This document shows positions 1-64,000 of a DNA stretch of 64,000 nt, one piece after another. A program made the position numbers and the translations under genes. Below the pieces are notes generated by a model. The model had not been told where the DNA came from, made no database searches, and worked only from the letters and a program-made list of their open reading frames with translations. Within the stretch, counting starts at the first letter, position 1, and every line of letters starts with the position of its first letter. The stretch is from Chionis minor. Its lineage: Eukaryota > Chordata > Aves > Charadriiformes > Chionididae. The DNA is taken from NCBI GenBank assembly GCA_013398295.1, contig VZSF01001145.1, forward strand, positions 1,142,146 through 1,206,145, read 5' to 3'.

Positions 1-2440
1 ATTTCGCATCTCGTGCGGTGCAATTCTTTGGTCCATTTTGCACCAGATTTTTCCATGCTGCTGTAACAAGTCTCCTCCCCATTTCTGTTTAAAATCATTT
101 CCTGCTCGAAGCAGGTTGCTAACCACCAAAAGCCTTGCCACCAAGGGCTTGGCTGCTAAAATATAGGGTTGGCTGAATCGCTCCTTAACTCTTTCATGGC
201 ATCAGAAAGTCATTTCAGAGCTTTTAAGGGCTTGTTTTCGGAGCTGAGCCCCCAGCACAGGGTGCAGCAACCCTTGCTTCTCCCCTCCTTACCTCCTGCT
301 TGCCTTTCCCCTCACTCCCAAATTGGGACGTCTCCAGAACTGGGTGTGGGGACCTCTGTTTTTGGGAGGGAGGGTGCTTAATATGAGAAATGCCACTGCA
401 AGTGGTTTTTCCTCTTATCCCCGTGGTGAAGTTGGTGAGCTGAGCCTGCTGTCCCTGGATGCTGCAATGGCTGCATCCCACTTTTCTCACTGCTGCTGTC
501 ACCTGGGGCATCTTCTGGCCTCCTGGCCAAGACCAAAGTGCTCCCAGATGTGGCTTTTGACACCATTACAACCTTGGACATAGGGCATGTTACACTGGGC
601 TGCTGCAAGGCCGGAGTATTGGGTTGCTTAAGTGAATATTTTGTTTTGGAAGGATTCCCCAGGCCATTATATCAGCTTTAGAGATGCTTCCCTGCAGCGC
701 TTTTACTTATAGGAGCTCTCCTATGGAAAGAAAAAAGAATATTTGCAATGTAAAAGCATAGGGTGTGTGCAGGAAGAGGGGTTAATTTTTAATTTTTTTG
801 GAAGCTGTTGTTGATACGCAGTTCCTCTATTTACTGGCTGCCAAGCTGTTCTCAGGACTGGCCGTTGCTCCTACAAGAAAACATTTTGGAGGCGGGATGC
901 CTTTGTCTGGCAGCCCATCGCCAACAAAAATAAAACCACCGTGGAAACATGCAGGAGAGCAGCTGCTGTTTATACGATCCCCACATTGTTTGGAACTGCT
1001 GTCCTGGGAATTAAAAAGGGGAGGAAAGAAGAATGTAAGTTGAAATGGTCTGTTAACACAAGCAAGAGCTGTTGGTGTCCTTGCTGGGGGACAGCGGCTC
1101 CTCATCACCAGTGTTTGGCTCACAGTCGGGGCAAGATGGGGGGGATCACTGAATTTTGGTGTATTTGCGTTATTTGGCTGCACAATTTCTAGGGGGAATT
1201 TATTCTTTTTCTGAAATGAGAGACAGCCATCCTGGTCCCCAGACCAGCAACCTCCCTCCCCCATCCTGGTGTTTGCCCTGTGGGTCTCTTCCTCGCCCAT
1301 CCCAGGGGGAAACATCCCCTCTTCTTTTTCTCAGCCCACATCCCATGTTCCTCACCACACCAACACTAATTCCCTGTGCTTTCACCAGCTTTGTTACATT
1401 TTCAGCTTTTCATTTTCTCCCCATGATGTGTTTCTTACAGCAAAGTGTTTGCTCTTGGGGGGTTGGAGCGAAGCATCCAGGTGGAGGAAAGGGGTCTGCA
1501 GTCAAGAAGCAGGACCTGGTTGGGGTTTCATCTCCGCTAAACTCCTGTGTTGCAGGTAACTGCAGCTGGGCTGTAAATGCTAGGCTGGAGGAGCAGTTGC
1601 CATAAAAACAAGGAAAAATCCATTCCCTCTGTGCTTTCTGGGATACAAGGGTTGACTCTTAGGGTCAGGGAGGGCTGCTCAGCCTCAAGCCTGGTCCAAC
1701 AGGGCCAGTACCACAGTGCCTGGAAATAAGGGTCTGTTGGGAACAAGGGGTTGTTGGATGGAAGCTCAAGCAGCTGTGGATAAACTTTTTTTGCTATTTT
1801 AATTTTTTAAAACTATTTTATTCCAGAGAAAGCTGCACCTTCTAGAGTATTTCACTGGGGGTAAATGCAGCAGTGAAAATGATAGCATTCTCACTAAGAT
1901 GAGTACTATCTTTTTCTTAGTGTAATAGCAGGAACAAACCCCAATTTTCTTTTCTAAACTGTTCTGAGCTAAGATGTGGTTTATAGGCCAAGGTTGGAGG
2001 GTGTTTGTCTGCCTTTGCAGGTGCAGATTTACAGCTCTACCTAGACTGATGCAGTATCATGGTCAAGGCTCCTGACACGTCATGGGGTACCCCCAGGGAA
2101 TATGCCAGCCTGTGGCAGGCTGGTTTGTGGCACGGAAAAAATGCTGCTTTTGAAATGCAGAGCCAAAGATGAATCCAAACTACAAACTGTGTGAATTTTT
2201 CTGCCATCTTGCCTCCCACCAGCAAACAGATCTGTGCTCAGAGGTAGAGGTCTGGGGAGGCCGTGTGTGTTACAAGCGCCAGATGTGACCCCTATGTGTG
2301 ACCCGCTCCCAAAACCCAGCTGCTAACGGGATGTGCAGCAAGTGAGGAGGCCATTGAAGGAATTTGAGGGGATGGATGCTGCGGGGACAGGCTCCAGCTC
2401 TCCCTCTTCAGGGCACTTGGTGCAAGCAGAAGTTAGCATG
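1..2440. other. Intergenic stretch, nothing recognised
   Basis: I see no exon with convincing splice sites, no RNA gene and no recognisable repeat here. Open frames of up to about 160 codons occur on both strands but show no domain and overlap one another. The stretch ends at the provirus 5' LTR. Confidence 0.5.
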
Positions 2441-2664
2441 AGCTAGTGGTGACTAATCCCGTCCCCCCCTCCCCAAATAGATAAGGGGCAGAGCAGCTGC
2501 TACCGTGTGATTTCAGCTTCCCTAATCAGTGCCGAAGAGGATAAGGAAAGACAGGGAAAGTGTCCTTGGGAACACAGGGGGAGGGATGCAGCACCTGCAG
2601 GGGGAAAAGCCACCAAGAAAGTAAACAGAGGTGTTATCAGCCCCAAACAACGACCTGCCATGGC

Positions 2665-2670
2665 TATAAA
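2665..2670 (+). promoter_or_regulatory. TATA box of 5' LTR
   Basis: TATAAA lies in the context CTATAAAAAG, placing a transcription start near 2692-2697. The matching position of the 3' LTR reads GATAAAAG, a weaker TATA. Promoter function is inferred. Confidence 0.6.
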
Positions 2671-2786
2671 AAGCCACCGGCGTGAGACCCTCCGACCAGC
2701 TTGACCTTAAAGGTGTCAAATCCACCGGAGCTCTGCAGCGACCATCTCCAGGTCCCCAGGACTGCCAGGACGTCCAGCCAAGGATT

Positions 2787-2788
2787 GG
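2787..2788 (+). promoter_or_regulatory. Candidate retroviral splice donor
   Basis: GGATTG/GTGAGAT fits a 5' splice site and is also retained in the 3' LTR copy. It could feed the acceptor at 3008-3009, removing a leader intron, or the env acceptor at 8483-8484. No transcript evidence is available here. Confidence 0.4.
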
Positions 2789-2849
2789 TGAGATCTTATT
2801 ATCGGGGTCCTATTACACCTCTGCTTCGCTTTGCCCGTTCCCGCGTCCC

Positions 2850-3081: not shown

Positions 3082-4779
3082 ATGATGACCGACATCGTTA
3101 GCAACTGGAAGCTGGAGCAGTTTGTGCTCCAGAAGTGTCTCCCCCCAGTTTGGTCCCCGGGTGCCTTCCAGGGTCCGGAGGCGTACCAGCAGCTGTGCCA
3201 GCAGTGGGAGAGTTGGTCAGAGGAGACCAAAAAGCCCAAACCCACAAACAAGTGCAAGAAGCGAGCGGCTTTGCAGGGTTTGTTGATGGTGGGCAGGGAG
3301 TTGTCCAGATTGCTGAAGGAGGCTCTGGAGAGCGTGCAGACTTTGGAGCAGGCCAAAGGTGAGCTCAAAATGCAGGTGGACAACCTGCAGGCGGAGGTGC
3401 AGGGTTTGTGCGGGGATTCCCTACGGAGCGCGGTGGAGATCACCCGGCTGGAGAACAAGCTGGGCTACGAGAAGCTGAAATCGGAGGAGCTGCAGAAGGA
3501 GGTTGGCAAGTTGATCGGGGAGACCCACGATGCGCAGAGCGCGGTGCGGGCGGTCCTGCAGGATGTCCAGCGGGACCGGAGCACCGGCCCCGATCACAAG
3601 GTATGCCATGCCAAGATACAGGAGCTGCAGGCAGAGCTGGGGGTGTCGAGGGGCATTGTGGCTGCCATCCAAGGCAAGAGGAGCCGGTTTGGGAATGGAG
3701 AAGGGGAGGAGTCCCTGGACCCGCACCCGCCCCACTATGACTATGAGGATGATGTATGGGGTGCCAACGGCCCCACCAGGCCATCACCCTACGCTCCTCT
3801 GCGGGAGGAGGTGTGCCAGCTGCAAGGAGGGGAGGCGGACACTTCCAAAATTAAAAAGAGCCCCCCTGACGAGCCGGCTGGCCACGGCCCACTCCAGGCC
3901 ATAGACACCAATAGGGCTGTGCTCTGGTTTAGCCCCGAGCAGCTTAAAACATTGGGTAAGACACTGGGGCCATTGACGAAGGAGACAGCAGTCAACTGGC
4001 TGTCCAGGGCCCAGTGGCTGCCCAGGTGCCAGAGCGGCAACTCGGTGAGTGACCTGATAGATGTGGTGAGAAAGTGCATGAAATCGGATGATTTCGCGGC
4101 GCTGCCGGGGGACGTTCAGATGGGCAATGTCCAGGACATCAGGGACATCCAGTCGGCTGTGCTGAAGGTGTTCTTCCCGGAGGTCAACCCCTTAGTGCTC
4201 TTTCACCAGGAGAAGCAAAATCCCGAGGAGCGTCCGGATGCCTACGTTAACCGTAAGAAGATGCTCTACCAAATGACTGGGCTGCCCGGCTCAAAGGACT
4301 CCCCCCTTGATTTTGACAGGCCCGAATTCAAGGAGCCACTGGTGGTTGGGTTGACCCCCCCATTGCGGGTGATCGCTGGTGGAGATGCGGCTAGAAAGCC
4401 GCTGTTGGAGCTGGAGCAGATCCTGACCCAGAATTTTGAGCTGCAAAAGCAGGCGTTCCCGGGATACATGCTGGGGGGGAAGAAAGGGAAAACCTCGGCC
4501 ATGTCCTTCCAAAATCCGGGGGTGAGAAAAATGCAAGGAGACAACCGTAAAGATCCTGATAGCAAGGGTGGTTCGGGGAAGGAGAACAAGCAAGGCCTGA
4601 GGTTTCAAAAATCCAACTTTTGGCCAGCTGAGATGAGGAAGCGCTTGATAAAATATGAGAAGCAGGAGGATATTGACAGCTTGCCGGATGGGGAGCTCTT
4701 AGACAAACTGCTCCTGCATGAGGCCAAAAAGCACAGCAGCTCCCACCCGATTGACCCGGGGTCTAAGGCTCAGCAATAG
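3082..4779 (+). CDS. Endogenous retroviral Gag, intact 565-aa frame
   Basis: This is the retroviral structural polyprotein frame, uninterrupted for 565 codons and ending in TAG. Start: tandem ATGs at 3082, with A at -3. Residue 2 is not Gly, so no N-myristoylation signal is present. Residues about 62-165 are Leu/Glu/Lys-rich with heptad spacing, a likely coiled coil. A PPHY late-domain-type motif sits at 216-219, inside an acidic, proline-rich linker. Residues about 275-460 are capsid-like, with a major-homology-region-like segment around 376-396. The C-terminal basic region (about 467-525) contains no cysteine, so the usual nucleocapsid CCHC zinc knuckle is absent. It is in frame with pol across the single stop. 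Confidence that this is gag rests mainly on position and the capsid-like region; homology is weaker than for pol. Confidence 0.85.
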   Translation: MMTDIVSNWKLEQFVLQKCLPPVWSPGAFQGPEAYQQLCQQWESWSEETKKPKPTNKCKKRAALQGLLMVGRELSRLLKEALESVQTLEQAKGELKMQVDNLQAEVQGLCGDSLRSAVEITRLENKLGYEKLKSEELQKEVGKLIGETHDAQSAVRAVLQDVQRDRSTGPDHKVCHAKIQELQAELGVSRGIVAAIQGKRSRFGNGEGEESLDPHPPHYDYEDDVWGANGPTRPSPYAPLREEVCQLQGGEADTSKIKKSPPDEPAGHGPLQAIDTNRAVLWFSPEQLKTLGKTLGPLTKETAVNWLSRAQWLPRCQSGNSVSDLIDVVRKCMKSDDFAALPGDVQMGNVQDIRDIQSAVLKVFFPEVNPLVLFHQEKQNPEERPDAYVNRKKMLYQMTGLPGSKDSPLDFDRPEFKEPLVVGLTPPLRVIAGGDAARKPLLELEQILTQNFELQKQAFPGYMLGGKKGKTSAMSFQNPGVRKMQGDNRKDPDSKGGSGKENKQGLRFQKSNFWPAEMRKRLIKYEKQEDIDSLPDGELLDKLLLHEAKKHSSSHPIDPGSKAQQ

Positions 4780-4782
4780 GGC
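4777..4782 (+). promoter_or_regulatory. gag UAG stop in frame with pol (readthrough candidate)
   Basis: Gag ends in CAA TAG GGC. The reading frame continues without another stop to 8448, and pol has no ATG near its beginning. A UAG followed by G is the arrangement gammaretroviruses use to make Gag-Pol by stop-codon readthrough. I did not establish a downstream pseudoknot. Confidence 0.6.
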
Positions 4783-7700
4783 TGCCAGGCACCCGCATCG
4801 CCCCTTTTTGTGGCACCGATTAAGACCGATTCGTGGGGGCGCCTGATAGTTGATGTAACTATTGGAGGAGGGGTGCTTGGACAAGTGATGTTAATTGATA
4901 CTGGTGCCTCTTATTCAATTCTGAATATGGCCCCTGGCGAAGCCGGGGTCTTCCAAACCTGTGAAATTATTGAACTGACAGGGCCGAATGGCCAAAAATC
5001 CTCAGTGCCATTCACAGGGCCCATACCCTTTGAAATTGGGACTATCAAAGGGTTTGAAAAATTTGGTAAAATGGAAATAAAGGGAAAGCCAGGAATTTTA
5101 GCCATTTCTGCACTGACAAAAATGGGGGTGGTGGTGGACCTTGCAAACCAAGTGCTGCTACACTGCCCCCAAAGTGATGTGCCTGTCATCCCGGCAAGTC
5201 ACAGGGTGATGTCAGTGAAAGCCCCTGAGCTCCTGGTCCACCCTGAGTGGGAGCCCCGAGTGAAACGGGTCACGGAGCAGTTCCCCCAGGTCTGGGCAAG
5301 GAGCAAGCTGGACTGTGGGCAGATTGATGCTGTTGTGGCAGTCAAAGGGCCGGATCCCCCTCCTCAGCCACAGCCCCAGTACCCAGCTGAGGCTGAGGAT
5401 GGCTTGTGGGACACAGTCAAAACCTTGCTGGAGCAGGGGGTGCTGGTGGAGCAGCAGAGCACCAGCAACGCCCCGGTGTGGCCCCTGCGGAAAGCTGATG
5501 GGAAAACGTGGAGGCTGACAGTCGACTTTCGCGCCTTGAACCGTGTCATCCCGCTGCGGACCTCTGTGGTGGCCAAGTACCCAGACATCATGGCAGCCAT
5601 CTGCCGGGGATCCGAGTGGTTCTCTGTGCTCAGCCTGACCAGCCCGTCCTTCGCCATCCCCTTGCATCCTGAGTCCTGGCACAAGTTTGCTTTCACCCTT
5701 CGAGGACGGAAATTTGCCTTCGTCAGAGTCCCCCCGGGCTTCCACAATGCCCCTGCCATCTGCCACACGCACGTGGCGAGGATGTGGGAGAAGCTCAGCC
5801 ACCGGGAGAGCGTGCTGTCCTGTGCTGGTGATGTCCTCATCCACACCCAGACCAAAGAGGAGAACCTGGAGGTGCTGGCGGAGGTGTTGGAGGCTGTCCA
5901 GAAGACGGGCTTCAGGGTCAGTCCCACCAAGGCCCAGCTGTGCTGGAAGGAGGTCTCTTACATGGGTGTGACACTGGGGGAGGAAGGGTGCTCCCTGGAG
6001 AAGCAGAGGGTTGAGCTAATACAGAAGGTGTCAGCGCCGGCCGATACTACTACCCTGAGGTCCTTCCTGGCTCTCCTGAGGTTCTCCCGGGAGTTCATCG
6101 AGGGCTACGCGGAGAAAGCTGCCCCCCTCTGCCACCTCCTGAAAAAGGACACCCCCTGGGAATGGGGGCCAGAGCAGGACGAGGCGGTGAAGACCTTAAA
6201 GGAAAGCGTGGCGCAAGCCCCCATGCTGGTACGTCCCCAGGGGGACAGACCCTACGTCCTACAGCTGGCCAGCACGGGGAGGGGGCTGCGGGCCACCCTG
6301 GGCCAGCAGCACGGCGGCCACCTCCTCCCCATCGCCCACGCCTCGCGCCTCCTGACGCCGGCCGAGCAGCAGTTCACCGACTACGAGAGGGAGGTTTTAG
6401 CCTTGACCTGGGCCCTGCAGCACTGGGAGTACCTGGTGGGGTCAGCCCCAGTGCTGCTGAGGACCTCCCGCACCCCGGTGAGGTACCTCTTGTCGGGGAA
6501 GGGGCAGGACGTGGGCTGCCCCAGGATGGCCAACTGGGCGCTGGCATTGGCCGACAAGGAGGTCCCCAGGGAGGTGGGGGAGCCCTGCCACGGCGCTTAC
6601 GAGGTGGTAATCAGTGCGGAGAGGGACGGGCAGGAGCTGGGGGGTCCCCTAGCTGAGCCCACGCGGCAGCAGGTGCCCCTGTTTGAAAGTGGCCTCAGCC
6701 TGGCGGAGGCCAAGGCGAGTGGCTATGTCGTGTGGTTCGTAGGCGGGTCCAACTACCACGAGAAGGCGGTGGCCTACACGGGCTACGCCGCCATCAACCA
6801 GGGCACCGGGGAGGTGGTGAAGGGGAAGTGCCTGCCGCACTCCATCCAGGCTGCTGAGCTGGTGGCCGTGACGGTCGCCCTGGAAAACACGCCGGCAGAC
6901 CAGCCAGTGGCCATATTTTCAGACTCGGGTTGGGTGGTGCGAGCGGTGCTGGAGTGGCTGCCGCTCTGGAGGGAGAGGGACATGCAGTCGGCCGATGGCA
7001 ATCCCATCACCTACGCCAAAAAGCTGCTGTACCTCATGAGGCTGGCAGAGCGGAGGGCGCGCCCGGCCCAGATCATTAAGGTCAAGACCCACAAGAAGGG
7101 AACGGAGGAGGCCAAGTGGAACAAGGAGGCGGACACCAAAGCCAAGCAAGGTGCGAAGGAAGGGCTGATGTGGAAGGCCAGCAAATCCTCAGAGAACAGC
7201 CCCGTGTTGGTGGCTCCCACCAGACACTCTGAGAGCGTGGACCTGCTGGGCTTGCAGGCGCAAGACCCCAGCATCTGGGAGTTAGCGAAGGGCAGGGAGT
7301 ATAAAGGGTGCAAGGTGTGGAAGGATGTCTCGGGGCTGGTCCTGGCACGGAGGGAGGGAGCAGACTTCCCGGTCTGGGTGGTGCCTGAACTCATCCGGAT
7401 GGAGCTGGTGGCCCTGGCTCATGAGCAAGGGCATCTGGGGACAGACAAGACCATGGTGAGGCTGCAGGGTGCTGGGTGGTGGCCCGAAATGAGGGAGGAC
7501 GTGGAGAGGTATGTCAGCAACTGCCTGACATGCGCAGCCAACAATCCCGACATCAAAACAGCCAAAGCCCTCCTGGGCCACCAGAGGATTTCTGGGCCGT
7601 GGAGCAAGTTACAGGTGGAGTTTATTGGGCCCTTGCCCCAGACAGCCCAAGGGAACAGGTATTGCCTGGTGATCAGTGATAACTTCACAAAGTGGGTGGA

Positions 7701-8448
7701 AGCATTTCCGGCTCGAAACAACACGGCCAGTGCAACTGCAAAGATCCTGGTAGAGTACGTGTTCTCACAGTGGGGTGTCCCAAAGGAGATCAACTCGGCC
7801 CACGGCCAACGCTTCATTGGGGAAGTCACAAAAGGAGTGTGCCAAGCCCTGGATATCAAGCAAAAGCTTCACATCACGGGACATTTCCAGAAGCCCGGCT
7901 CAGCGGAGGGGCCTGACGAGCCCCTGAAGATGGCGCTAAGGAAGCTCGTGAAACAGCAAAAGAAAGACTGGGATCAGAAGCTCCCATTGGTCCTGCTGGC
8001 GTTACGGGCGGCCATGGCATCTCCAGCACCTTGTCCCCAAAAGCTGCCTCCTGGAAAAGACCTGAAGCTGCTGGGACACTGGTGGCAAAGAGGGGAACCA
8101 CCGGATGAACTGCAGCCCCGTGTTCTGATGGACAGGTGGGTCCAGGATGTGCTGAGGACGCTGTTGGCTACATACCACCAGCTTGCCTCGGTGCAGGAGA
8201 CCAACATCCCCAGGATGGATAAGCAGCTGGGAATGCTGCTGCGTCCCGGAGAGTGGAACACAGGGGACCTGGTAACATATCGGGGGGTCAGAGAGAAGAA
8301 CCAGGTGCTGGAATCCCAATGGATGGGGCCTGTTAGGGTTGTGAACAAGGCCAGCCCCTCTGTGTACCAGGTAGAAATCAGAAAGGGGGCAAAAAGGCAG
8401 GAAAAATGGTTCCATTCTTCACAATTAAAAGCATGGAAGGGAAATTAA
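4780..8448 (+). CDS. Endogenous retroviral Pol (PR-RT-RNase H-IN), intact frame with dead catalytic sites
   Basis: The frame is open from the codon after the gag UAG to TAA. Numbering from codon 4810: protease about 1-120 with D30-T31-G32 retained; reverse transcriptase about 140-560; RNase H about 635-785; integrase about 860-1212. RT motif A has Ser275 where the first metal-binding Asp belongs, and the YXDD box reads CAGD (338-341). RNase H has Gly645 for its first Asp but keeps E683, D705 and D775. Integrase keeps its zinc ligands (H871, H875, C905, C908); the D,D-35-E triad reads E937, A997, E1033, with exactly 35 residues between the last two. Family relationship is gamma/epsilonretrovirus-like. 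Polymerase and strand-transfer activity should be lost, yet there is no frameshift or stop. This suggests selection on the protein or its RNA. Confidence 0.92.
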   Translation, partial: GCQAPASPLFVAPIKTDSWGRLIVDVTIGGGVLGQVMLIDTGASYSILNMAPGEAGVFQTCEIIELTGPNGQKSSVPFTGPIPFEIGTIKGFEKFGKMEIKGKPGILAISALTKMGVVVDLANQVLLHCPQSDVPVIPASHRVMSVKAPELLVHPEWEPRVKRVTEQFPQVWARSKLDCGQIDAVVAVKGPDPPPQPQPQYPAEAEDGLWDTVKTLLEQGVLVEQQSTSNAPVWPLRKADGKTWRLTVDFRALNRVIPLRTSVVAKYPDIMAAICRGSEWFSVLSLTSPSFAIPLHPESWHKFAFTLRGRKFAFVRVPPGFHNAPAICHTHVARMWEKLSHRESVLSCAGDVLIHTQTKEENLEVLAEVLEAVQKTGFRVSPTKAQLCWKEVSYMGVTLGEEGCSLEKQRVELIQKVSAPADTTTLRSFLALLRFSREFIEGYAEKAAPLCHLLKKDTPWEWGPEQDEAVKTLKESVAQAPMLVRPQGDRPYVLQLASTGRGLRATLGQQHGGHLLPIAHASRLLTPAEQQFTDYEREVLALTWALQHWEYLVGSAPVLLRTSRTPVRYLLSGKGQDVGCPRMANWALALADKEVPREVGEPCHGAYEVVISAERDGQELGGPLAEPTRQQVPLFESGLSLAEAKASGYVVWFVGGSNYHEKAVAYTGYAAINQGTGEVVKGKCLPHSIQAAELVAVTVALENTPADQPVAIFSDSGWVVRAVLEWLPLWRERDMQSADGNPITYAKKLLYLMRLAERRARPAQIIKVKTHKKGTEEAKWNKEADTKAKQGAKEGLMWKASKSSENSPVLVAPTRHSESVDLLGLQAQDPSIWELAKGREYKGCKVWKDVSGLVLARREGADFPVWVVPELIRMELVALAHEQGHLGTDKTMVRLQGAGWWPEMREDVERYVSNCLTCAANNPDIKTAKALLGHQRISGPWSKLQVEFIGPLPQTAQGNRYCLVISDNFTKWVEAFPARNNTASATAKILVEYVFSQWGVPKEINSAHGQRFIGEVTKGVCQALDIKQKLHITGHFQKPGSAEGPDEPLKMALRKLVKQQKKDWDQKLPLVLLALRAAMASPAPCPQKLPPGKDLKLLGHWWQRGEPPDELQPRVLMDRWVQDVLRTLLATYHQLASVQETNIPRMDKQLGMLLRPGEWNTGDLVTYRGVREKNQVLESQWMGPVRVVNKASPSVYQVEIRKGAKRQEKWFHSSQLKAWKGN

Positions 8449-8460
8449 CGGGGCTGGAAA

Positions 8461-8484
8461 GCCCATCTTGCTTATGTTTTGCAG
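8461..8484 (+). promoter_or_regulatory. Candidate env splice acceptor
   Basis: A pyrimidine-rich tract (TTGCTTATGTTTTGCAG) ends in AG at 8483-8484, ten bases before the env ATG. This is the expected place for a subgenomic env mRNA acceptor. A second, weaker TTGCAG lies at 8587-8592, inside env. Confidence 0.5.
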
Positions 8485-8494
8485 ATAAAGGAAA

Positions 8495-11119
8495 ATGGAA
8501 GGCGATTGTGACCGGCGGGAAGGGCGAACTTCGTGGCATCACCACCCCTGTTTGCACTGCGGGGAAAATGCTTTCAAATTTCTGGTTGCAGGATTTGCTT
8601 TGCTTTCTGGTATGTGCATAGCGCTGAGCACCCAACATGCCCAACCAACCCATCAGCATCTCAGACAAAAAGTCAGTCTTTCCCACTCAGAAAGGCACCC
8701 CGAAACATGGGCCTCAACCCAGCACAGAGTTAGGAGGTACACAAAAATTGGGACTGATTGGCCCTGGTCTCAAGCTTACATAAAATACACGGGAAGCATG
8801 GGTTTAAATTCTAACAAAGGCTTAAATTTGTCAACGGTAGTTATGCATGGGACGGAGGTGTACTTGGAAAATGAATGGAGCTGGGATAGCACAAACAGAC
8901 TCCCTCAGCTGCTGGGGAAGATGGGACAGGAAATAAAGGTAGGGTGCAGGGTAATTAATGGATCCACTCACCAGCGGGTCACTCAAATCTCCGTAACTGA
9001 AGTAAAAACTAAGAAGACTCATAAAAAAAACTGTGCTGTGGCAAAATTGGACTGTTGGTGCAATTTTACTTTGGTCCAGCCAGTCTTTGTAGTCTGCCTT
9101 TGGGCCCACAACAGCGTGGGGCTGTCCTTTAAATTCAAGATTAGCACCATGATGCCCCCCTTTGCTGCCGTTAAGATCTCAAAGTGCCATTTTTTGGCCT
9201 GGCATGCAGCTCAATACGCTGAAGTTGGCAACCAAGTAAAATTGGAAATAAAATACTCTCTAGAAAGTGTAGCTGACCCAATACAAATCAATGGCACCAC
9301 CGTGACTGTTACTGCCCCTAAAGGCCACAAGTGGGTCGTGCCAGTAAACTGCCTCCGTGAGAGCAAAACATTTAATAGATCTGAATTAGGCATGGAGGCT
9401 TCATGGTATAATCAGGATTATGGACGCTGCCCACACCTGATCATAAATCTCCAGGTATGGTGTCAAGGAAACCTGAGCATAGAAATGTCCCCTGAGCTTG
9501 GAGGGAAGTGGTGGCTAGGAGGACCTGAAGGATTTAAAAAAGAGTTTACCATCATTGCTGTCTTGCGCCCCTTTGTTTCCAAAATAGGCCCTTATGTAGT
9601 CAAGAAAAATCACATCCAAGAGCTGTTGACTGGGCCTGTCCGATCACTGAAGAAGGTGGTGCTGTCCCTGTCCACTGTTAATATTTCATCCATCAGACCA
9701 CTCTGTACCCCCTTCCTATCCACCCTCCACACCGGCTGGCAGGCATGGCTCCACAGCCGCTCCATCCAAGGGACCCGGGCCAGGAGAGACCTCTTGGCCA
9801 CGGCACTGGGAGGAGGAGGTGCTGGGCTAGGAGTACTCAACAGCATGAATGTTGAGGTCCTGGCCAACAAGTTGGAGGCTGTCACCTCGGGCGTGCAGGG
9901 CCTCCTCAACCCCCTGAATTCATCCCTGGCCAGCCTTGGGATGGGGCAGTGGCTCGTGTCAGAGGTGTTACCCACCTGGGAACAAATCAGTGAGAAAGAC
10001 CACCAGGTGCTGTTGCGAGCACTGGGCATCGAACAAAATAACATCTCCCTTGCTCTTAGTTGCATCCAGGCCCAGATGTGGGTGCAGAGTGTTGTTGCAG
10101 GTATCCTGAGAGACGGCGACAACGGTGTCCTCCCCACCGAGATCCGAAAGATCGTGTGGGACGCGGCCACAGAGAAGGAGCGGCAGCTCCAAGCCTGGTG
10201 GAGGCTCGTCAACTTCACCCACGACCAGGTCCTCAACGCAGTCATCGCCCACGTCCTGACCGTGGCGGAAGCCCACATCGAAAAGGTCTACCCCATCGTG
10301 GCCCTGGGGGTTAACACAAACGGGTCTGTGGTCTACCCCCTGGACCACCGCATGTGGGCGAGGGTGTCTCATGGGAAATGGCAATCGGTAGATTTGGAAG
10401 CCTGCATTTTGGAAAGGGGGCTGGGGTTCATATGCGAAGATGATGCCCTTAAGGCGAGCGATGTCTGCTTTGACACCAGAGAAGGGGTATGTCATTTTGA
10501 GATCAATCCCCAGAGCAGTAATAAAACTGTGTTAGCATATGTAGGTAAAGGGTGTGTGTGTTTTAGAACGATGTGTGAATACGTGCAAATTAATGACGTT
10601 TATAATCAGACCGTGTTTAATGACTCGAATATGTGTGCTTGCAATGTAGCTATTATTAGAGGCTGTGATTTTGTGTATAGACCGCCTGTGTTTACTAGCC
10701 AGTTGCTGATCAGAAACTATACCTTGTACCATAGTATAACCCCGACTCCCATCGGGATGGATTTGTCACTTGTAAAAGAAATGTTAGAGCATGCAAATTT
10801 ACAGCAGCTGTTAGAAAATGCTAAGGCAGAAGCTAAAAAGATCCTAATAACTGTACATCATGATGGCAATGTTATAAAACAAGTAATGGAGCGAATTAAG
10901 AGGGTGGGAGAGCACCGCTGGTGGGAAATTTTCTTCGGCTGGTCCCCCACAGCCACCGGCGTCTTCAACGCGCTCCTGCACCCTATTGTAGTCATACTGC
11001 TAATGCAAATCTGCTTGTGCTTTGCCATGGTAGCAACTTGTTACTGGATGAGGCAGGTGAAACTCTGCATTGACAACCAGGTGAAAGGACTGGGGCTGGC
11101 CAAGCGCCTCCTACCATAG
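8495..11119 (+). CDS. Endogenous retroviral envelope glycoprotein, intact 874-aa frame
   Basis: This is a membrane glycoprotein frame, complete from ATG to TAG. The start has A at -3 and G at +4 and follows the candidate splice acceptor; it lies in a different frame from pol, 46 nt after the pol stop. A hydrophobic segment at about 28-46 could be a signal or leader anchor. There are two basic furin-type motifs: RVRR at 78-81 and RARR at 428-431. The second precedes a Gly/Ala/Leu-rich, fusion-peptide-like stretch (about 432-450) and then a helical region. A membrane anchor lies at about 823-852, after a Trp-rich membrane-proximal stretch, followed by a short tail of about 22 residues. There are many N-glycosylation sequons. 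A cysteine-rich block fills 637-724. I do not see a CX6CC motif. The role in this bird is unknown; expression as a surface protein is inference. Confidence 0.9.
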   Translation: MEGDCDRREGRTSWHHHPCLHCGENAFKFLVAGFALLSGMCIALSTQHAQPTHQHLRQKVSLSHSERHPETWASTQHRVRRYTKIGTDWPWSQAYIKYTGSMGLNSNKGLNLSTVVMHGTEVYLENEWSWDSTNRLPQLLGKMGQEIKVGCRVINGSTHQRVTQISVTEVKTKKTHKKNCAVAKLDCWCNFTLVQPVFVVCLWAHNSVGLSFKFKISTMMPPFAAVKISKCHFLAWHAAQYAEVGNQVKLEIKYSLESVADPIQINGTTVTVTAPKGHKWVVPVNCLRESKTFNRSELGMEASWYNQDYGRCPHLIINLQVWCQGNLSIEMSPELGGKWWLGGPEGFKKEFTIIAVLRPFVSKIGPYVVKKNHIQELLTGPVRSLKKVVLSLSTVNISSIRPLCTPFLSTLHTGWQAWLHSRSIQGTRARRDLLATALGGGGAGLGVLNSMNVEVLANKLEAVTSGVQGLLNPLNSSLASLGMGQWLVSEVLPTWEQISEKDHQVLLRALGIEQNNISLALSCIQAQMWVQSVVAGILRDGDNGVLPTEIRKIVWDAATEKERQLQAWWRLVNFTHDQVLNAVIAHVLTVAEAHIEKVYPIVALGVNTNGSVVYPLDHRMWARVSHGKWQSVDLEACILERGLGFICEDDALKASDVCFDTREGVCHFEINPQSSNKTVLAYVGKGCVCFRTMCEYVQINDVYNQTVFNDSNMCACNVAIIRGCDFVYRPPVFTSQLLIRNYTLYHSITPTPIGMDLSLVKEMLEHANLQQLLENAKAEAKKILITVHHDGNVIKQVMERIKRVGEHRWWEIFFGWSPTATGVFNALLHPIVVILLMQICLCFAMVATCYWMRQVKLCIDNQVKGLGLAKRLLP

Positions 11120-11310
11120 TCAAGGGCAAGACTGGGTTGGCCTCTGTGTTTGCCACCAAGAAGAACTTTTAGCTCCGCTGTTGGCTGCAACCCAGTAGGC
11201 GTTGAGCGGTGGGGACACACGCCATACCAGACCTTGATGTGAGGGATGGCCTCCTCTGTTATAAGAGGGCCACCCAGGAGGGGAGGGCAGGCCAAGTAGC
11301 CTGCGGTTGG
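11120..11310 (+). other. Provirus 3' untranslated region
   Basis: Sequence between the env stop and the CR1 insertion. A purine-rich run at about 11275-11290 (AGGAGGGGAGGGCAGG) could be a relic polypurine tract, but it is not directly next to a recognisable LTR edge because CR1 sequence intervenes. Confidence 0.35.
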
Positions 11311-11519
11311 CGTGAATCACAGAATGGTTGAGGTTGGAAGGGACCTCTTGAGATGATCCAGTCCAAACCCCTCCCTGCTCAAGCAGGGTCACCTAGAGCA
11401 GATTGCCCAGGACTGTGTCCAATGGGTTTTGACTATCTCCACAGATGGAGACTCCACAACCTCTCTGGGCAAACCTGTTCCACTGTTTGATCGCCCTCAC
11501 AGTAAAAAAGCAAGAGTTA
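11311..11519 (-). mobile_element. CR1 LINE 3' fragment inside the provirus
   Basis: On the plus strand it opens AATCACAGAATGGTTGAGGT and continues with the conserved CR1 3'-end text (GGAAGGGACCTC, GAGCAG, GACTCCACAACCTC). This is the reverse complement of a CR1 tail. It lies between env and the 3' LTR, so it inserted after the provirus and disturbed the U3 border. Confidence 0.85.
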
Positions 11520-11998
11520 GCATAAGTAATTGTCTTTTAACCTCCCATCCCCAAATCCTAATGAGAAGAAGCTGCTCTTGTGTGATTTAAGACTCCTTAA
11601 GCAGAGGAGAAGGCAATAAACCCAAGGACAGTATCTTTGGAAGGAAAGAGAAGGGAACATAATGCGTGGAAAAGCACGCACTGAAGATGGCAGAGGTGTT
11701 ACCAGCCTCAAAGACTTGGAAACATGATAAAAGATGAGCAGAATGAAAGACCCTGTAATCACCTTGGACTTAAAGGAGCTGAATCCACACGGACCTTGGC
11801 AGCAACTGTCTCTGGGTTCCCAAAACTCCCAGGATGTCTGGCCAACGGATTGGTGAGATCCTGTTTTCAGAGCTTGGACATCACCGCTTTGCTTTGCATA
11901 GTTGTGCATGTGCTCAATAAAATTTGCCTGTTAGAGTATGGACTGTCTATTCAATTGCCACCTGCTCAGCTGCTCACTACCCAGACTTGTAACTTTAG
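11515..11998 (+). repeat. 3' LTR of endogenous retrovirus (polyadenylation LTR)
   Basis: This is a diverged copy of 2445-2850 in the same orientation, extending further because its 3' part is recognisable. It retains the GGATTGGTGAGATC block, then a T-rich stretch and AATAAA. Its TATA position reads GATAAAAG. The last section (CTGTTAGAGTATGGACT ... GACTTGTAACTTTA) matches the end of the third copy near 25000-25050, which helps place the 3' boundary. No clean CA end or target-site duplication was found. Confidence 0.75.
11916..11921 (+). terminator. AATAAA poly(A) signal in 3' LTR
   Basis: AATAAA lies in the 3' LTR downstream of the R-like block. The 5' LTR lacks a hexamer at the matching place, so transcripts would run through the 5' copy and end here. 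Confidence 0.6.
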
Positions 11999-30300: not shown

Positions 30301-33300
30301 TATTATCCAACCTACAGCTGCTAGAGACAGAACTTCAGCAGTTTGTAGACCAAACAAAGGAAGAAATGAACTTGTTCTGTAACGCAGATGATGATTATAA
30401 TTTCAGAGCAGTTCTTTGAACAAATCATAACTGAGCACTCAAGCTACACTTAGAGATTGCAGCACTTGCTCATGTTCTCCTTACCTTTTGTGCCAGATTC
30501 TGCAGGGATGGCTTTGTCTCCCAGCTCCTCTAATATCTTTTTCCGTGCTTCATTTCTTCTGTGCTTCTTACCAATATAATGCTGCTGGGCCGCAAGTGGA
30601 TTATTGAGGGGAGCACAGCAGAGCTTGCAGTACTTGTCTGGATCATTTAACTTCAACCTTGTGTTGGAGGATGATGAAGACTCTTCAGCTTTTGAAGGCA
30701 GCAAGGGTTTCTCAGCCAATGGCTTCTGTAAAACTGGAGACATGGAAGTAGAAGATAAATCTGCTGACAGCACAGCAAATGAAAGGACAATTCCATGGAG
30801 CCGAACAGGTGACTGTAGAACTACAGAGTTGTTGGGTGCTGAACTACTCGCAAGAATTATAAAATCTCTTAGTCCTTGCAAGGACATGAAAGTACAGACC
30901 AGTAAGGAAGACAGCACTGGAATATTCAGAGACCCCACAATTAGATACCTACAGAACAGCTGTGTTCGATGGCTGGTCACTGTAAATTCCTTATGCAGCC
31001 TGAGAGATTTACCTTGCAGAGGGTAACTCAGAGCACATACGTTGTGCTCCATCTTTAAATACAGTTCAGTAACTTGTACAGCACTAACACCAGTTAAGTG
31101 TTGCTTGTGGACTGTTTTTTAATTTCTTATCATATTAATTTATCACAGGGACATCTTGTTGGGACTACAGTGAATTCTCAAAACAACCATAAACACCTTT
31201 CATTAATAACAAAATTAGAAATATTTGCCTTTAGTTTCGGTCAGTGAAAGATAGGGAATTTGAAAGCAAGGTTCCATGGCTCCAGAGTTGCACGGGGCAT
31301 TATTGTTGTTTATTCACCTAAGGAGTTACCACATGACAGCTCCGTGACTTTGGTAGAATAGAAAGGCATAAAGAGATGGCAAAGCGTAGGAAGATACTTC
31401 TCTATATTTGCTTCAGGGAGTGACATTAAATGCATGCAAAGCAAACTAGTTCCTACCAGAAACAGGCCGCATGCTCTGCGCTGTCACATTGGCTTGGTCA
31501 TCCGATAATTGCTTCAGCTTTTTAGCGTGGATCTTTCCCAAGTAGTGAGACAAAGCAACAACTGGGGAAGTAAAAATCATGTTGCAGACATCGCAGTATT
31601 TGTTTTTGTCCACTACTCCACTCCCATCCATCTGAAACCAGGCAAGGGCAAACTCAGTTATGAGCATTCACTGAAGTATACAAGGAAACATTTTATTTAA
31701 CAATGAAGAGGAATAGTCACCTGAAAATTGATACAATCTGTTTTCTTCTGTTTGTCATGCTTCTGCCCCTCCTCTTTCTCACCATGCATTTGGCTGTAAA
31801 CACGAACTTTCTGAGCATGTTTTTTGCCCTGGGAAGAGACTAGAATTATTCCTGTTTCAAGTAATAAGGATACAAGCAGTGATATAGCCAGTGACTGGGA
31901 CTTCATTCGAACTGCTTTCAACACTTGCCAAATTTTATTTGTATAAAGCAGAGCCACATGCAGACAAATGCCAGCTCATGTGACAATCCTATAGTTAATC
32001 AGGAACACAGTACTTAGCATTACTCGTAATATTTTGCCTCAAGCACCCCTTGGAGTCATCTACTCTCAGCTCTTTGGAGAAGGAAAAACCCTGACATGTT
32101 CCTTTGCAAACAGGGATGCTAAAATAGGCAAGGAAAGGAATGCAGCCATGCCACAGAACAAGCCTGCTGTGCTTGAGGGACTTCATGCCATGACACACAA
32201 GAATGACAGGCAGCACAACTTAGCTTACCTTCCTAAATAAGAAGTCTAGTCTTCCCATACAGTCAGTGGAGAGAAACAGGTTTCCCTGGAAGCTGAGTTA
32301 AAATATCTCCAGTTTGCAGTTAGTCTATGGAGATTTCTACACCTTTCTACTGATGATACAATAGTCCAGGTAACTACCATAGGGTCTTAATGTATACTTA
32401 CCTCAGACGCAACTATTTTTTAATTCTTAGATGCTCTCTGAACCCATAACTTCAAACTTGTGCACCTGTAATGTACTTACCCACGTGCAACACTATACCC
32501 ATGGGTACCACACTATACAGTGGTAACCTACAAAGCAAAACAAGAAACTTGTCTTCTCTGACCTGATGCTTTTCAGATGTCTTTTAAGGATTCTGAGGAG
32601 CAGCGCAGGATATTACAACAATATTATCAAAGAGAAAGAGGACCTATTACACCTGGTTAGACAATACAAGCACAGCTGAGAAGAGAGTGTCAGTTATTTT
32701 CATCAATTCATTTTGTAACCGTGATATCCTCAACTGGATTTTGGTCCAAGAAACAGAAAATCAAATTGAGGGTCTGAACTCTATAAAGTTCTGATTGTAC
32801 AACTGCTGCCTAAGTTAAATCAAAGTAAGGAAATATAATACCTTGCAAGACTTGAGTCTTAATAATGTGAACAGCAAAAAAGACTCCTGATAGCAACCAA
32901 CATTTTAAACTTTTGCAGGAAGAAAGACAGAAATTTCTGTGCCTGCAAATCTGTATACCCTCTTAAGATCAAGTTTCAAGCATGCTTTCCCACGTCTACA
33001 ACAATATCCCAAAGCACACGGTAGTTTCAAGAAATCCCTTCAGCATGATTCATACAACCTGCCTCAAGCAGACACCGGTGCACAGAGCATCATGTGTGTA
33101 TCCCTGCGTGAAGCATCAGAAGGCATGACCTTGATCCTCTACTGTGAGCATTGCCCCGTGCCATACGTATGTTCTGGCTCACGTGGTGCAGATCTGCTTC
33201 AACCCCATATACAGCACAGCCTGAACTCGCTCAGTTCCTTCTAAAATCATGCTGCAATATGCAGGTGATTGCCCTTCACTATGCTGAGCTCACAACTTTC

Positions 33301-47575: not shown

Positions 47576-47882
47576 TGACCGGGGACTGCTGGTAACTGCC
47601 TCGTGACTGCTAGTAACTGCCTCATCGCTGCCCGATAACTACTCGTAACTACCCGTATCACTCTCGCAACTACTAGGAACTGCCTCAGAACTACTAGTGC
47701 CCAATAACTGCCTAGTAACCCCTAGTGAGAGCCAAGAAACTGCCTAATAATGGCTCGGTAACTACTAGTAAGTCTAGTAATATCGTAATAACTGCCTGGT
47801 AACAACTAGTAACAGCTTAGTGTCTGCCTAGTAACTCCTAGTAACTGCCTAATAGCTGCCTAGCAGCTACTAGTAACTGCAG
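47575..47882 (+). repeat. Diverged minisatellite, TAACTGCCTAG-like unit
   Basis: About 300 bases made of imperfect repeats of roughly ten bases with the consensus CTAGTAACTGC, sometimes combined into about 20-base higher units. It lies directly upstream of the CpG-rich promoter. Confidence 0.75.
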
Positions 47883-48971: not shown

Positions 48972-49102
48972 TATTCTATTCTATTCTATTCTATTCTATT
49001 CTATTCTATTCTATTCTATTCTATTCTATTCTATTCTATTCTATTCTATTCTATTCTATTCTATTCTGTTCTGTTCCGCTCCGTTCCGTTCTGTTCCGTT
49101 CC
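48972..49102 (+). repeat. Pentanucleotide microsatellite (ATTCT)n
   Basis: About 19 uninterrupted ATTCT units to 49067, then a degenerate tail of CTGTT/CCGTT variants. Confidence 0.97.
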
Positions 49103-63100: not shown

Positions 63101-64000
63101 AGAAAAGTATAATAATTCATTCTTTGTATATATGTCATGCCAGAGTAGTCATCCTGAAAATTGTTTGTGACTCAGACAGTAGTAATTGGGTTTTATAAGC
63201 TCCGTGGGCCACCCAGCAAACGCGATCAGGTTGAATACAGCTCTTAAGGTTGATTTCTAACTGATACCTGTTTTAATAAGCGTGAACTTTGCTTTCTGCT
63301 GATGCTCTGCTTGAATTGCCTCAAATTCATTTTCCTGTGACCTTTCTCTGAATTATTTGCAGGAAGCAAACATAAGGAAACCCATGCATGGTCAAACCAA
63401 ATTTATCTTAGACATCCCAAATGAATATTAACAGCAAATAATTCTCATCTCTGCTCTGGGCTGGACCATCTGCATGAGTCCTGCATTGCTTCTCTTCTGA
63501 TGTGTTATCTCAACTAAAGATGTTTTTTCTATACTACCTCCTGCAGTGATCTCATAGGCACTCCTTTCTCATTAAAGTCTGGAGATGAGATGCTGGAGAT
63601 ATATTTCTTCTAAAGCATCGGCGGGAACTGAGAAATCCTGAATGTAGCTGAGTTCAGTGTTTTCTCTAATGCTTCTTCCTGCCTATGTTTTGGGACTAGA
63701 TCAGCTGCAACGGCTTTACCCTCAGTGACCAAAGAGGACTGCAGGCTGTTGGTGTGGGAATCTTCCCCAACCTCTGCCAGGCCAACCATGACTGCTGGCC
63801 CAACTGTACCGTCATCTTCAACAATGGCAAGTGAGTGGATTTCTTTCCTTGAGTACAGCAGGGATGCATCCTGGTGGGCAGCTCGGCAGACTCTGCTAGC
63901 CCCACAGTGTCAGATCTCTGCCCCAGAAAATCTATTCATTCTTGTTTCCTTCTCTAGCTCAGAAAAAAGGTATCAGGATTTTCTTTCTAAAGGGGAACTG
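50982..64000 (+). CDS. SMYD1: SMYD1, muscle SET and MYND domain protein (partial, exons 1-4)
   Basis: SMYD1 is a striated-muscle SET/MYND protein, reported as a histone methyltransferase and a myosin chaperone partner needed for heart development and myofibril assembly. Visible coding exons are 50982-51118, 60921-61097, 61782-61995 and 63700-63830, with GT/AG borders and consistent phases, giving 219 codons plus two bases. The N-terminal SET part has GKGRG at 16-20. The MYND zinc finger spans 52-90 (C52, C55, C65, C68, C74, C78, H86, C90). Exon 4 gives the SET motif NHDCWPN at 205-211. The start is the first of two Met residues (1 and 6); SMYD1 proteins normally begin this way. The gene runs off the window; the family is about 490 aa, so over half is missing. 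Confidence 0.95.
55450..55532 (+). mobile_element. CR1 3' tail fragment
   Basis: GGGGGATTGGACTAGATGAC, then AAAGGTCCCTTGCAACCC and repeated ATTCTATG octamers: the plus-oriented CR1 3' end. Confidence 0.88.
57815..57900 (+). mobile_element. MIR-like SINE relic
   Basis: The stretch TATTGTCCCCGTGTTAAAGC followed by AGGGAAGCTGAGCACCAAGT resembles the MIR 3' region in the plus orientation. Diverged and short. Confidence 0.4.
59495..59512 (+). repeat. TA microsatellite
   Basis: (TA)n run of about nine units. Confidence 0.75.
59560..59680 (-). mobile_element. MIR-like SINE relic
   Basis: TGCCTCAGTTTCCCCACTAT followed by GGATGATGACAATGTTCCC is the complement of the well-known MIR text with GGGGAAACTGAGGCA. 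Confidence 0.5.
60921..61097 (+). CDS. SMYD1: SMYD1 exon 2, MYND zinc finger
   Basis: Acceptor TCTGTCCTTCCAG, donor ATCAG/GTGAGA, 177 nt. It contains the complete MYND finger with all eight ligands. MYND fingers bind proline-rich partner peptides. Confidence 0.96.
61098..61781 (+). other. SMYD1 intron 2
   Basis: 684 bases. No exon or repeat is recognised. Confidence 0.6.
61782..61995 (+). CDS. SMYD1: SMYD1 exon 3
   Basis: Acceptor CTCCTGTCCAG, donor GGAGTG/GTATGT, 214 nt ending in phase 0. It encodes the helical insert between the two SET parts (LAARIMW ... QYISHIFGV). Confidence 0.95.
61996..63699 (+). other. SMYD1 intron 3
   Basis: 1.7 kb. A short MIR-like text (GGGAAACTGAGGCATGGAAA) lies near 62207-62245 and AT-rich, TATA-repetitive sequence at about 62350-62560. 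No further exon was seen. Confidence 0.55.
62207..62245 (+). mobile_element. MIR-like fragment
   Basis: GGGAAACTGAGGCATGGAAA is the most conserved part of MIR SINEs. Only about 40 bases are recognisable. Confidence 0.4.
63700..63830 (+). CDS. SMYD1: SMYD1 exon 4, SET core motif
   Basis: Acceptor GGGACTAG, donor GGCAA/GTGAGT, 131 nt. It encodes ISCNGFTL and [15 protein letters not shown], the SET-domain NH(S/D)CxPN block that binds the methyl donor. The last two bases start a codon completed beyond the window. Confidence 0.95.
63831..64000 (+). other. Start of SMYD1 intron 4
   Basis: 170 bases with no recognisable exon before the window ends. Confidence 0.6.

What the first reader, a model, noticed from the sequence alone, without database searches (positions are those of the whole stretch)
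3082..11119. Old provirus with all three long reading frames intact: probable domesticated endogenous retrovirus
The two LTRs differ by many substitutions and indels, which under neutrality means a very old insertion. Over the same time about 2,650 codons of gag, pol and env collected no frameshift and no stop other than the gag UAG. Neutral decay cannot easily explain that. Selection on one or more products, or gene conversion, would.
Basis: partly seen in the sequence, partly recalled or inferred. Interest (0 to 1): 0.85.

Follow-up and report, generated by a model that had tools for sequence, protein, structure and literature searches.

The report
Bird copy of domesticated retrovirus OVEX1
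This is another bird's copy of OVEX1, a retrovirus that settled in the bird lineage very long ago and whose three genes are still kept open although it has lost parts it would need to multiply; it was first described in chicken ovaries in 2009.

Summary
Gag (565 aa, then UAG), Pol (1,222 codons after the UAG, same frame) and an Env-like ORF3 (874 aa) are open, between degenerate repeats 2424-2834 and 11508-11897 (72% identity in aligned columns, 17 gap runs; score 119.5, maximum 23 in 300 shuffles). Neutral decay to that distance would give about 10, 20 and 15 premature stops. Chicken LOC422926 is 85% identical to ORF3. Added here: kiwi ORF3 and ostrich Pol relatives, ostrich outside the other birds in the Pol tree; an LTR remnant of about 400 bp, where the paper found 120; two RT and one integrase catalytic residues absent in 17 of 17 bird proteins compared, so Pol stayed open after losing chemistry; and a published follicle proteome listing a LOC422926 protein. 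No function is proven; dN/dS values are the paper's.

The parts
2424..2834 (+). 5' LTR remnant holding the TATA box and the splice donor; true ends not identified
   Evidence: alignment to 11508-11897
2665..2670 (+). TATA box; by comparison with chicken the cap site lies near 2692
   Evidence: in chicken the cap lies 23 nt after the TATA box
2788..2792 (+). splice donor GTGAG, inside the repeat (the same bases stand in the 3' copy)
   Evidence: the chicken intron starts at +97. Assigned by comparison, no RNA seen
3082..4779 (+). gag ORF, 565 aa, ends in TAG (4777-4779)
4780..8448 (+). pro-pol ORF in frame after the TAG: protease, RT (two catalytic residues absent), RNase H, integrase (first catalytic residue absent)
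8477..8484 (+). splice acceptor TTTTGCAG, 10 nt before the ORF3 ATG
   Evidence: [quoted passage not shown] Assigned by comparison
8495..11119 (+). ORF3, Env-like, 874 aa: two RxRR sites, TM-type ectodomain, C-terminal hydrophobic segment
9155..9559 (+). segment of ORF3 (residues about 221-355) mostly missing from the related multi-copy Envs
   Evidence: 7 related Envs aligned
11276..11287 (+). 12-purine run, candidate polypurine tract
   Evidence: chicken has a 13-purine sequence in the 3' UTR
11310..11507 (-). CR1 LINE fragment in antisense, abutting the 3' LTR; identified by eye and by the paper's CR1-Y4 in the same place, borders approximate
   Evidence: sequence; paper
11508..11897 (+). 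3' LTR remnant
11916..11921 (+). AATAAA polyadenylation signal
   Evidence: within about 10 nt of the chicken spacing from the ORF3 start

Best explanation
The element is the OVEX1 gene of a bird: a retrovirus that integrated before the palaeognath/neognath split, lost reverse transcription and integration, and is kept as a host gene. Shown here or in print: an LTR-derived TATA promoter; in chicken one full-length and one singly spliced mRNA; purifying selection on all three frames (chicken against zebra finch); two catalytic residues of RT and one of integrase absent in the bird proteins compared. Inferred: Gag is made from the unspliced mRNA, with some Gag-Pro-Pol by reading through the UAG; ORF3 is made from the spliced mRNA as a membrane glycoprotein cut at its RxRR site. 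My commitment on function (about 0.5): a conserved cellular role in ovarian supporting (granulosa) cells, exerted by the membrane glycoprotein and the capsid-type Gag as structural proteins, rather than an antiviral arms-race role, because the sequences are strongly constrained. The confidence below is for identity and domestication, not for that role.
For: Identity: the window Gag contains the chicken motifs EKQNPEERPDAYVNRKKMLY and KKPKPTNKCKKR exactly and has the same length, 565 aa; MLIDTGASYSIL and WMGPVRV are the same; TATA, donor, acceptor and poly(A) signal stand where the chicken map predicts; chicken LOC422926 is 85% identical over 100% of ORF3; a SMYD1 SET exon lies downstream at 63700-63828 (E 7.8e-23), and the paper places OVEX1 between CD8 and SMYD1 in chicken and zebra finch. 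Constraint. Age: kiwi ORF3 86% over 874 aa, ostrich Pol 82% over 91%, ostrich outside 12 other birds with 100/98 support. Loss of enzymes. Protein: LOC422926 (accession C7ACT2) quantified by TMT LC-MS/MS in chicken follicles, F6/SY ratio 0.476, P 0.0007. Ovary is the site of highest expression in chicken.
Against: No molecular function is shown in the papers opened. C7ACT2 was not checked to be ORF3 rather than another product of the locus, and it was not among the nine proteins that paper confirmed by PRM. Wide low expression (PMC5006616) does not fit a purely ovarian role, and those authors favour receptor interference. Kiwi and ostrich copies were placed by sequence and tree only, not by neighbouring genes; the ORF3 tree did not resolve kiwi as basal, and in the Pol tree both outgroup rows are long branches whose place the tool calls unsure. 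The CD8 side was not tested. Read-through of the UAG is not shown; the RNA after it folds no better than shuffles (z -0.25).
Confidence: 0.9

Rival explanations
1. Antiviral co-option: the Env-like protein blocks receptors, or the Gag interferes with capsids, of related retroviruses.
For: Proposed for OVEX1 by PMC5006616 (passages). Related Env proteins are still encoded in many birds (18 clusters at 43-54% identity), so a target lineage existed.
Against: Strong constraint (gag dN/dS 0.08; ORF3 TM ectodomain 92% mean identity to the window over 10 chosen orthologs) is unlike typical arms-race genes (recalled); expression is highest in ovary. The more variable segment at residues 221-355 (78%) could still be under such pressure; not tested.
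Confidence: 0.25
2. Only one product (for example Gag) is selected and the other frames stay open by chance or hitch-hiking.
For: Gag has the lowest dN/dS; Pol has lost enzyme residues.
Against: At half the LTR distance 0 of 1000 simulations keep pol or ORF3 free of stops; at a quarter of that, 0 of 1000 for pol and 9 of 1000 for ORF3. Pol and ORF3 dN/dS of 0.18 and 0.16 are far below 1.
Confidence: 0.05
3. Younger insertion or gene conversion: the frames are intact because the provirus is recent, or was overwritten by young copies.
For: Open frames alone are typical of young ERVs.
Against: Same frames and a SMYD1 neighbour as in chicken and zebra finch; catalytic residues absent in common in 17 of 17 bird proteins; LTRs not homogenised; apparently single-copy gag-pol in chicken and zebra finch.
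Confidence: 0.02
4. A replication-competent endogenous retrovirus.
For: All three frames are open.
Against: RT and integrase residues absent, degenerate LTRs, no primer-binding site found by the paper in chicken.
Confidence: 0.005

Closest known systems
OVEX1 (chicken chr 4, LOC422925/LOC422926; PMC2717909)
   Same: Gag length and motifs, in-frame UAG, Pol with RT and integrase residues lost as the paper describes, ORF3, splice sites, TATA, CR1 in the 3' UTR, SMYD1 neighbour
   Different: Another bird: ORF3 85% identical to chicken; a longer LTR remnant is recognisable (about 400 bp against 120 bp); the window lacks one RNase H residue kept by the 16 other bird Pols, and a second integrase residue
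Crocodilian CrocERV37-39 and tuatara SpeV
   Same: CrocERV37-39 cluster with OVEX1 in the phylogeny of PMC4299795, with similarity to SpeV (passages)
   Different: Repeat groups or fragments in reptiles; not compared here directly. A turtle Pol (P0073, Pelusios) at 43% keeps the RT aspartates
GGLTR11-type avian Envs
   Same: 18 hit clusters at 43-54% identity over 39-59% of ORF3; homology runs from the WPWSQA region to the transmembrane segment in the 7 aligned
   Different: They mostly lack ORF3 residues about 221-355. That these hits are GGLTR11 members, and multi-copy, is inferred from the paper's account of GGLTR11
Syncytins, PEG10/RTL1, percomORF (recalled)
   Same: Old retroviral or retrotransposon genes kept by hosts
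   Different: As recalled, these keep env alone or gag-pol; OVEX1 keeps gag, pol and env together

Membership tests
OVEX1 ortholog | Gag of 565 aa with the quoted MHR and NLS motifs | tested here: met
OVEX1 ortholog | gag and pol in one frame separated by UAG; ORF3 in another frame, starting just after the splice acceptor | tested here: met
OVEX1 ortholog | SMYD1 as neighbour | tested here: met
   SMYD1 SET exon at 63700-63828, about 52 kb downstream, E 7.8e-23; paper. A zinc-finger ORF lies between
OVEX1 ortholog | CD8 as the other neighbour | not tested
   only 2.4 kb lie upstream in the window; one motif scan for Ig-type sequence found nothing there, which does not test it
OVEX1 ortholog | Sequence closest to bird OVEX1 proteins | tested here: met
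   ORF3 at least 82% to 24 of 46 hit clusters including chicken LOC422926; Pol 81-90% to 16 of 82; Gag 83-98% to 7 of 7. The searches scored capped candidate lists
Endogenous retrovirus (provirus) | LTR pair flanking gag-pol-env | tested here: met
   TG/CA ends, target-site duplication and primer-binding site not identified
Domesticated (co-opted) retroviral gene | Frames kept open under purifying selection across long-diverged species | tested here: met
   open frames and neutral-decay test; dN/dS values are the paper's, not mine
Domesticated (co-opted) retroviral gene | A demonstrated host function | not testable with these tools
   none seen in the parts of papers read
Replication-competent retrovirus | Complete RT and integrase catalytic residues | tested here: not met
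   absent in 17 of 17 bird rows
Retroviral Env glycoprotein | SU/TM cleavage site, ectodomain with conserved Cys, C-terminal membrane anchor | tested here: met
   RxRR or RTKR site, Cys motif and hydrophobic segment in 11 of 11 aligned (window and 10 of the 24 ortholog clusters); homology to other avian Env-like proteins. Cleavage itself not tested
Retroviral Env glycoprotein | Known Env fold or Pfam Env family | tested here: inconclusive

The most novel reading that the evidence does not exclude
Birds keep a whole retroviral protein set (capsid-type Gag, an enzymatically dead Gag-Pol made by UAG read-through, and a membrane glycoprotein) as one host machine that makes non-infectious particles or surface complexes in granulosa cells, perhaps for transfer between follicle cells and oocyte, conserved since the ancestor of living birds.
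Probability: 0.12. Interest if true: 0.88.

Novelty: already known. Interest (0 to 1): 0.36.

Why it matters
Keeping gag, pol and env all open for the age of living birds is rare (the domesticated cases I recall keep one or two genes). The kiwi and ostrich proteins bear on the dating question left open in 2009, and a Pol that is open but lacks catalytic residues points to a use of the polyprotein other than its chemistry. The follicle proteome entry suggests that the missing evidence of translation may already exist. For the scan itself the result is a re-discovery of a published locus, which is why the score is moderate.

Tried and rejected
Rejected: young provirus, replication-competent virus, chance open frames (see rivals). 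The 37-bp direct repeat between pol and env found was left as a chance match and not tested. Extending the LTR pair upstream across the CR1 fragment or downstream gave scores of only 10.0 and 10.5; no shuffles of those sizes were run, but shuffles of the larger regions averaged 14.8. Primer-binding site: eight TGG starts were listed after the 5' repeat and not compared with tRNA ends. Read-through structure after the UAG: z -0.25, nothing. Structure models of Gag (mean pLDDT 44.4) and ORF3 (42.7) were too poor to use; only ORF3 was searched, and none of the 50 rows shown by each search is a retroviral Env, which means little at that confidence. Profiles of Gag and ORF3 matched no solved structure by sequence. 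NCBIfam gave four RNase H or transposase matches, all for the second Pol piece and all below their cut-offs. No Rfam or tRNA hit in the window. Viral contigs held no relative of Gag. Of ten flank ORFs only one had Pfam matches. No DNA of relatives was obtained, so no dN/dS of my own.

Full report
What was claimed.

The frames. Gag is 3082-4779 (565 aa, TAG), Pol continues in the same frame from 4780 to 8448 (1,222 codons and a stop), ORF3 is 8495-11119 (874 aa). Pol carries RT, RNase H, integrase zinc-binding and core domains (Pfam), and its best solved-structure matches by sequence are XMRV-type RT, Ty3 and foamy-virus enzymes (that the p80 entries are XMRV is recalled). Gag and ORF3 match no Pfam family at E 0.001.

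The LTRs. Regions 2424-2834 and 11508-11897 align with 277 identities, 106 mismatches and 17 gap runs; K2P distance 0.351; score 119.5 against at most 23.0 in 300 dinucleotide shuffles. The 2009 paper found only 120-122 bp repeats at 73% in chicken and no U3 or U5 match (section 7), so in this bird a longer pair is recognisable, or the paper's method missed it. A 12-purine run (11276-11287) precedes a CR1 fragment, identified by eye, that abuts the 3' copy. With an avian neutral rate of about 2e-9 per site per year (recalled), 0.351 corresponds to roughly 90 million years; constraint on the promoter could make this an underestimate.

Neutral decay. Taking half of 0.351 as the distance since insertion, simulated neutral change of today's frames gave on average 9.7, 20.3 and 15.1 premature stops in gag, pol and ORF3, with 0 of 1000 runs free of stops for each; scaling the LTR gap runs gives 36, 78 and 56 expected indels. 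At half that distance 2, 0 and 0 of 1000 runs were free of stops, at a quarter 42, 0 and 9. Openness therefore needs selection or a different age.

Identity. The locus is OVEX1 (PMC2717909; I read the abstract and outline and sections 6, 7, 8 part 1 of 2, 13, 14, 19, 21 and 32). The paper quotes EKQNPEERPDAYVNRKKMLY and KKPKPTNKCKKR in a 565-residue chicken Gag; both stand exactly in the window Gag. The TATA box, splice donor at 2788, acceptor ending at 8484 with the ORF3 ATG 10 nt later, and AATAAA at 11916 fall where the chicken map predicts; no RNA of this bird was seen. ORF3 is 85% identical to chicken LOC422926 over its whole length. The paper places OVEX1 between CD8 and SMYD1 in chicken and zebra finch; a SMYD1 SET-domain exon lies at 63700-63828 in the window (E 7.8e-23). 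The CD8 side was not tested.

Spread and age. All three protein searches scored capped candidate lists and report clusters at 90% identity. Gag: 7 of 7 hit clusters are 83-98% identical, lengths 544-565; 8 of 8 aligned Gags (window included) end at the same residue, but one, a predicted hornbill protein (P0009), lacks 27 residues and has 6 extra, and another lacks the first Met. ORF3: 24 of 46 clusters are at least 82% identical over 96% or more, among them crane, chicken, kiwi, woodpecker and several songbirds (groups partly recalled; for kiwi and crane); 3 are partial (59-67% covered); 18 are related Envs at 43-54%; 1 is a short match. Pol: 16 of 82 clusters are 81-90% identical, including ostrich; one is a 48% match and 65 are more distant. 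In the Pol tree (15 rows chosen from the 19 of alignment A2) ostrich lies outside the other 12 birds with support 100/98, and the birds form one group (99/94) against the turtle and one unnamed protein; both of those are long branches, and one has an unusual letter make-up, so their place is unsure. In the ORF3 tree (16 rows chosen from the 27 of A5) the 10 bird orthologs form one group (100/100), but kiwi is not resolved as basal. So the 2009 paper's open question about Palaeognathae leans to an insertion before the split, by sequence and tree but not yet by neighbours. The library search for 'ovex1' plus 'ostrich' gave one paper, on chicken repeats, seen as a listing only; of the 12 papers listed for 'ovex1' I opened 7 and saw no palaeognath OVEX1 in the parts I read.

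Enzymes. Of 17 bird rows (window plus 16), the motif A aspartate and the first motif C aspartate of RT are absent in 17 of 17, and the first integrase catalytic aspartate in 17 of 17; the second motif C aspartate is kept in 16 of 17. The protease aspartate is kept in 14 of 14 rows that cover it (one of them changes the next residue), and the zinc-binding His and Cys of integrase in 17 of 17. The first RNase H aspartate is kept in 16 of 17, missing only in the window; the second in 16 of 17. The second integrase residue is missing in the window and one other bird, the third in one other. One outgroup (P0072) keeps all of these; the turtle protein keeps those of RT and RNase H and does not cover protease or integrase. 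The paper reports the RT losses and the first integrase change in chicken and zebra finch. The losses shared with ostrich suggest a date before living birds diverged, and Pol stayed open afterwards.

Expression and protein, from papers. Chicken OVEX1 is expressed in the left gonad cortex, then in granulosa cells (abstract). PMC5006616 (passages) reports wide expression with ovary highest and 207 sites of the avian ORF3 alignment under purifying selection, and suggests receptor interference; it also reports homologous proteins in four reptiles, which I did not examine. PMC10572726 (passages) lists LOC422926 among 12 genes higher in the left gonad in both sexes at three stages; PMC8944860 (passages) reports low LOC422926 expression in its LYF follicles. 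PMC7367319 (section 6 read) quantified a LOC422926 protein, accession C7ACT2, by TMT LC-MS/MS: F6/SY ratio 0.476, P 0.0007, listed as 'Unknown', not among the nine confirmed by PRM. If the peptides are sound this is evidence that a product of the locus is translated, which the 2009 paper said remained to be shown. A search for that accession found only that paper.

Mechanism. Shown: open frames, LTR-derived promoter layout, absent catalytic residues; in print: transcripts, splicing, purifying selection. Inferred: read-through of the UAG (supported weakly: from the eleventh codon after the UAG up to the protease two relatives differ from the window at only 2 and 3 of 25 residues; no special RNA fold), furin-type cleavage and surface display of ORF3, and a conserved cellular role in ovarian support cells. 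I prefer that role to an antiviral one because constraint is strong, but neither has been tested.

Verdict.

Noticed in passing
window 30453-31052 (-): ORF with a C2H2 zinc finger resembling zinc finger protein 346 (E 8.5e-13) between OVEX1 and SMYD1; perhaps an exon of a host gene.
   Followed up: partly
window 63700-63828 (+): SMYD1 SET-domain exon (E 7.8e-23).
   Followed up: yes
window 2788-2792 and the matching bases in the 3' repeat: The splice donor lies inside the LTR repeat, as I recall for foamy viruses; this would fit OVEX1's reported closeness to class III elements.
   Followed up: no
window 4780-8448: This bird alone among 17 lacks the first RNase H aspartate, and with one other it lacks the second integrase residue: ongoing erosion of chemistry under an open frame, unless it is a sequencing error.
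   Followed up: partly
P0037-P0054: Related Env-like proteins are still predicted in kiwi, stork, penguin, gull, buzzard, shearwater and songbirds; some records are marked low quality.
   Followed up: no
window 48972-49076: TATTC array, 21 copies at 99%.
   Followed up: no
window 47705-47880: Diverged tandem array, 11-base unit, 16.6 copies.
   Followed up: no
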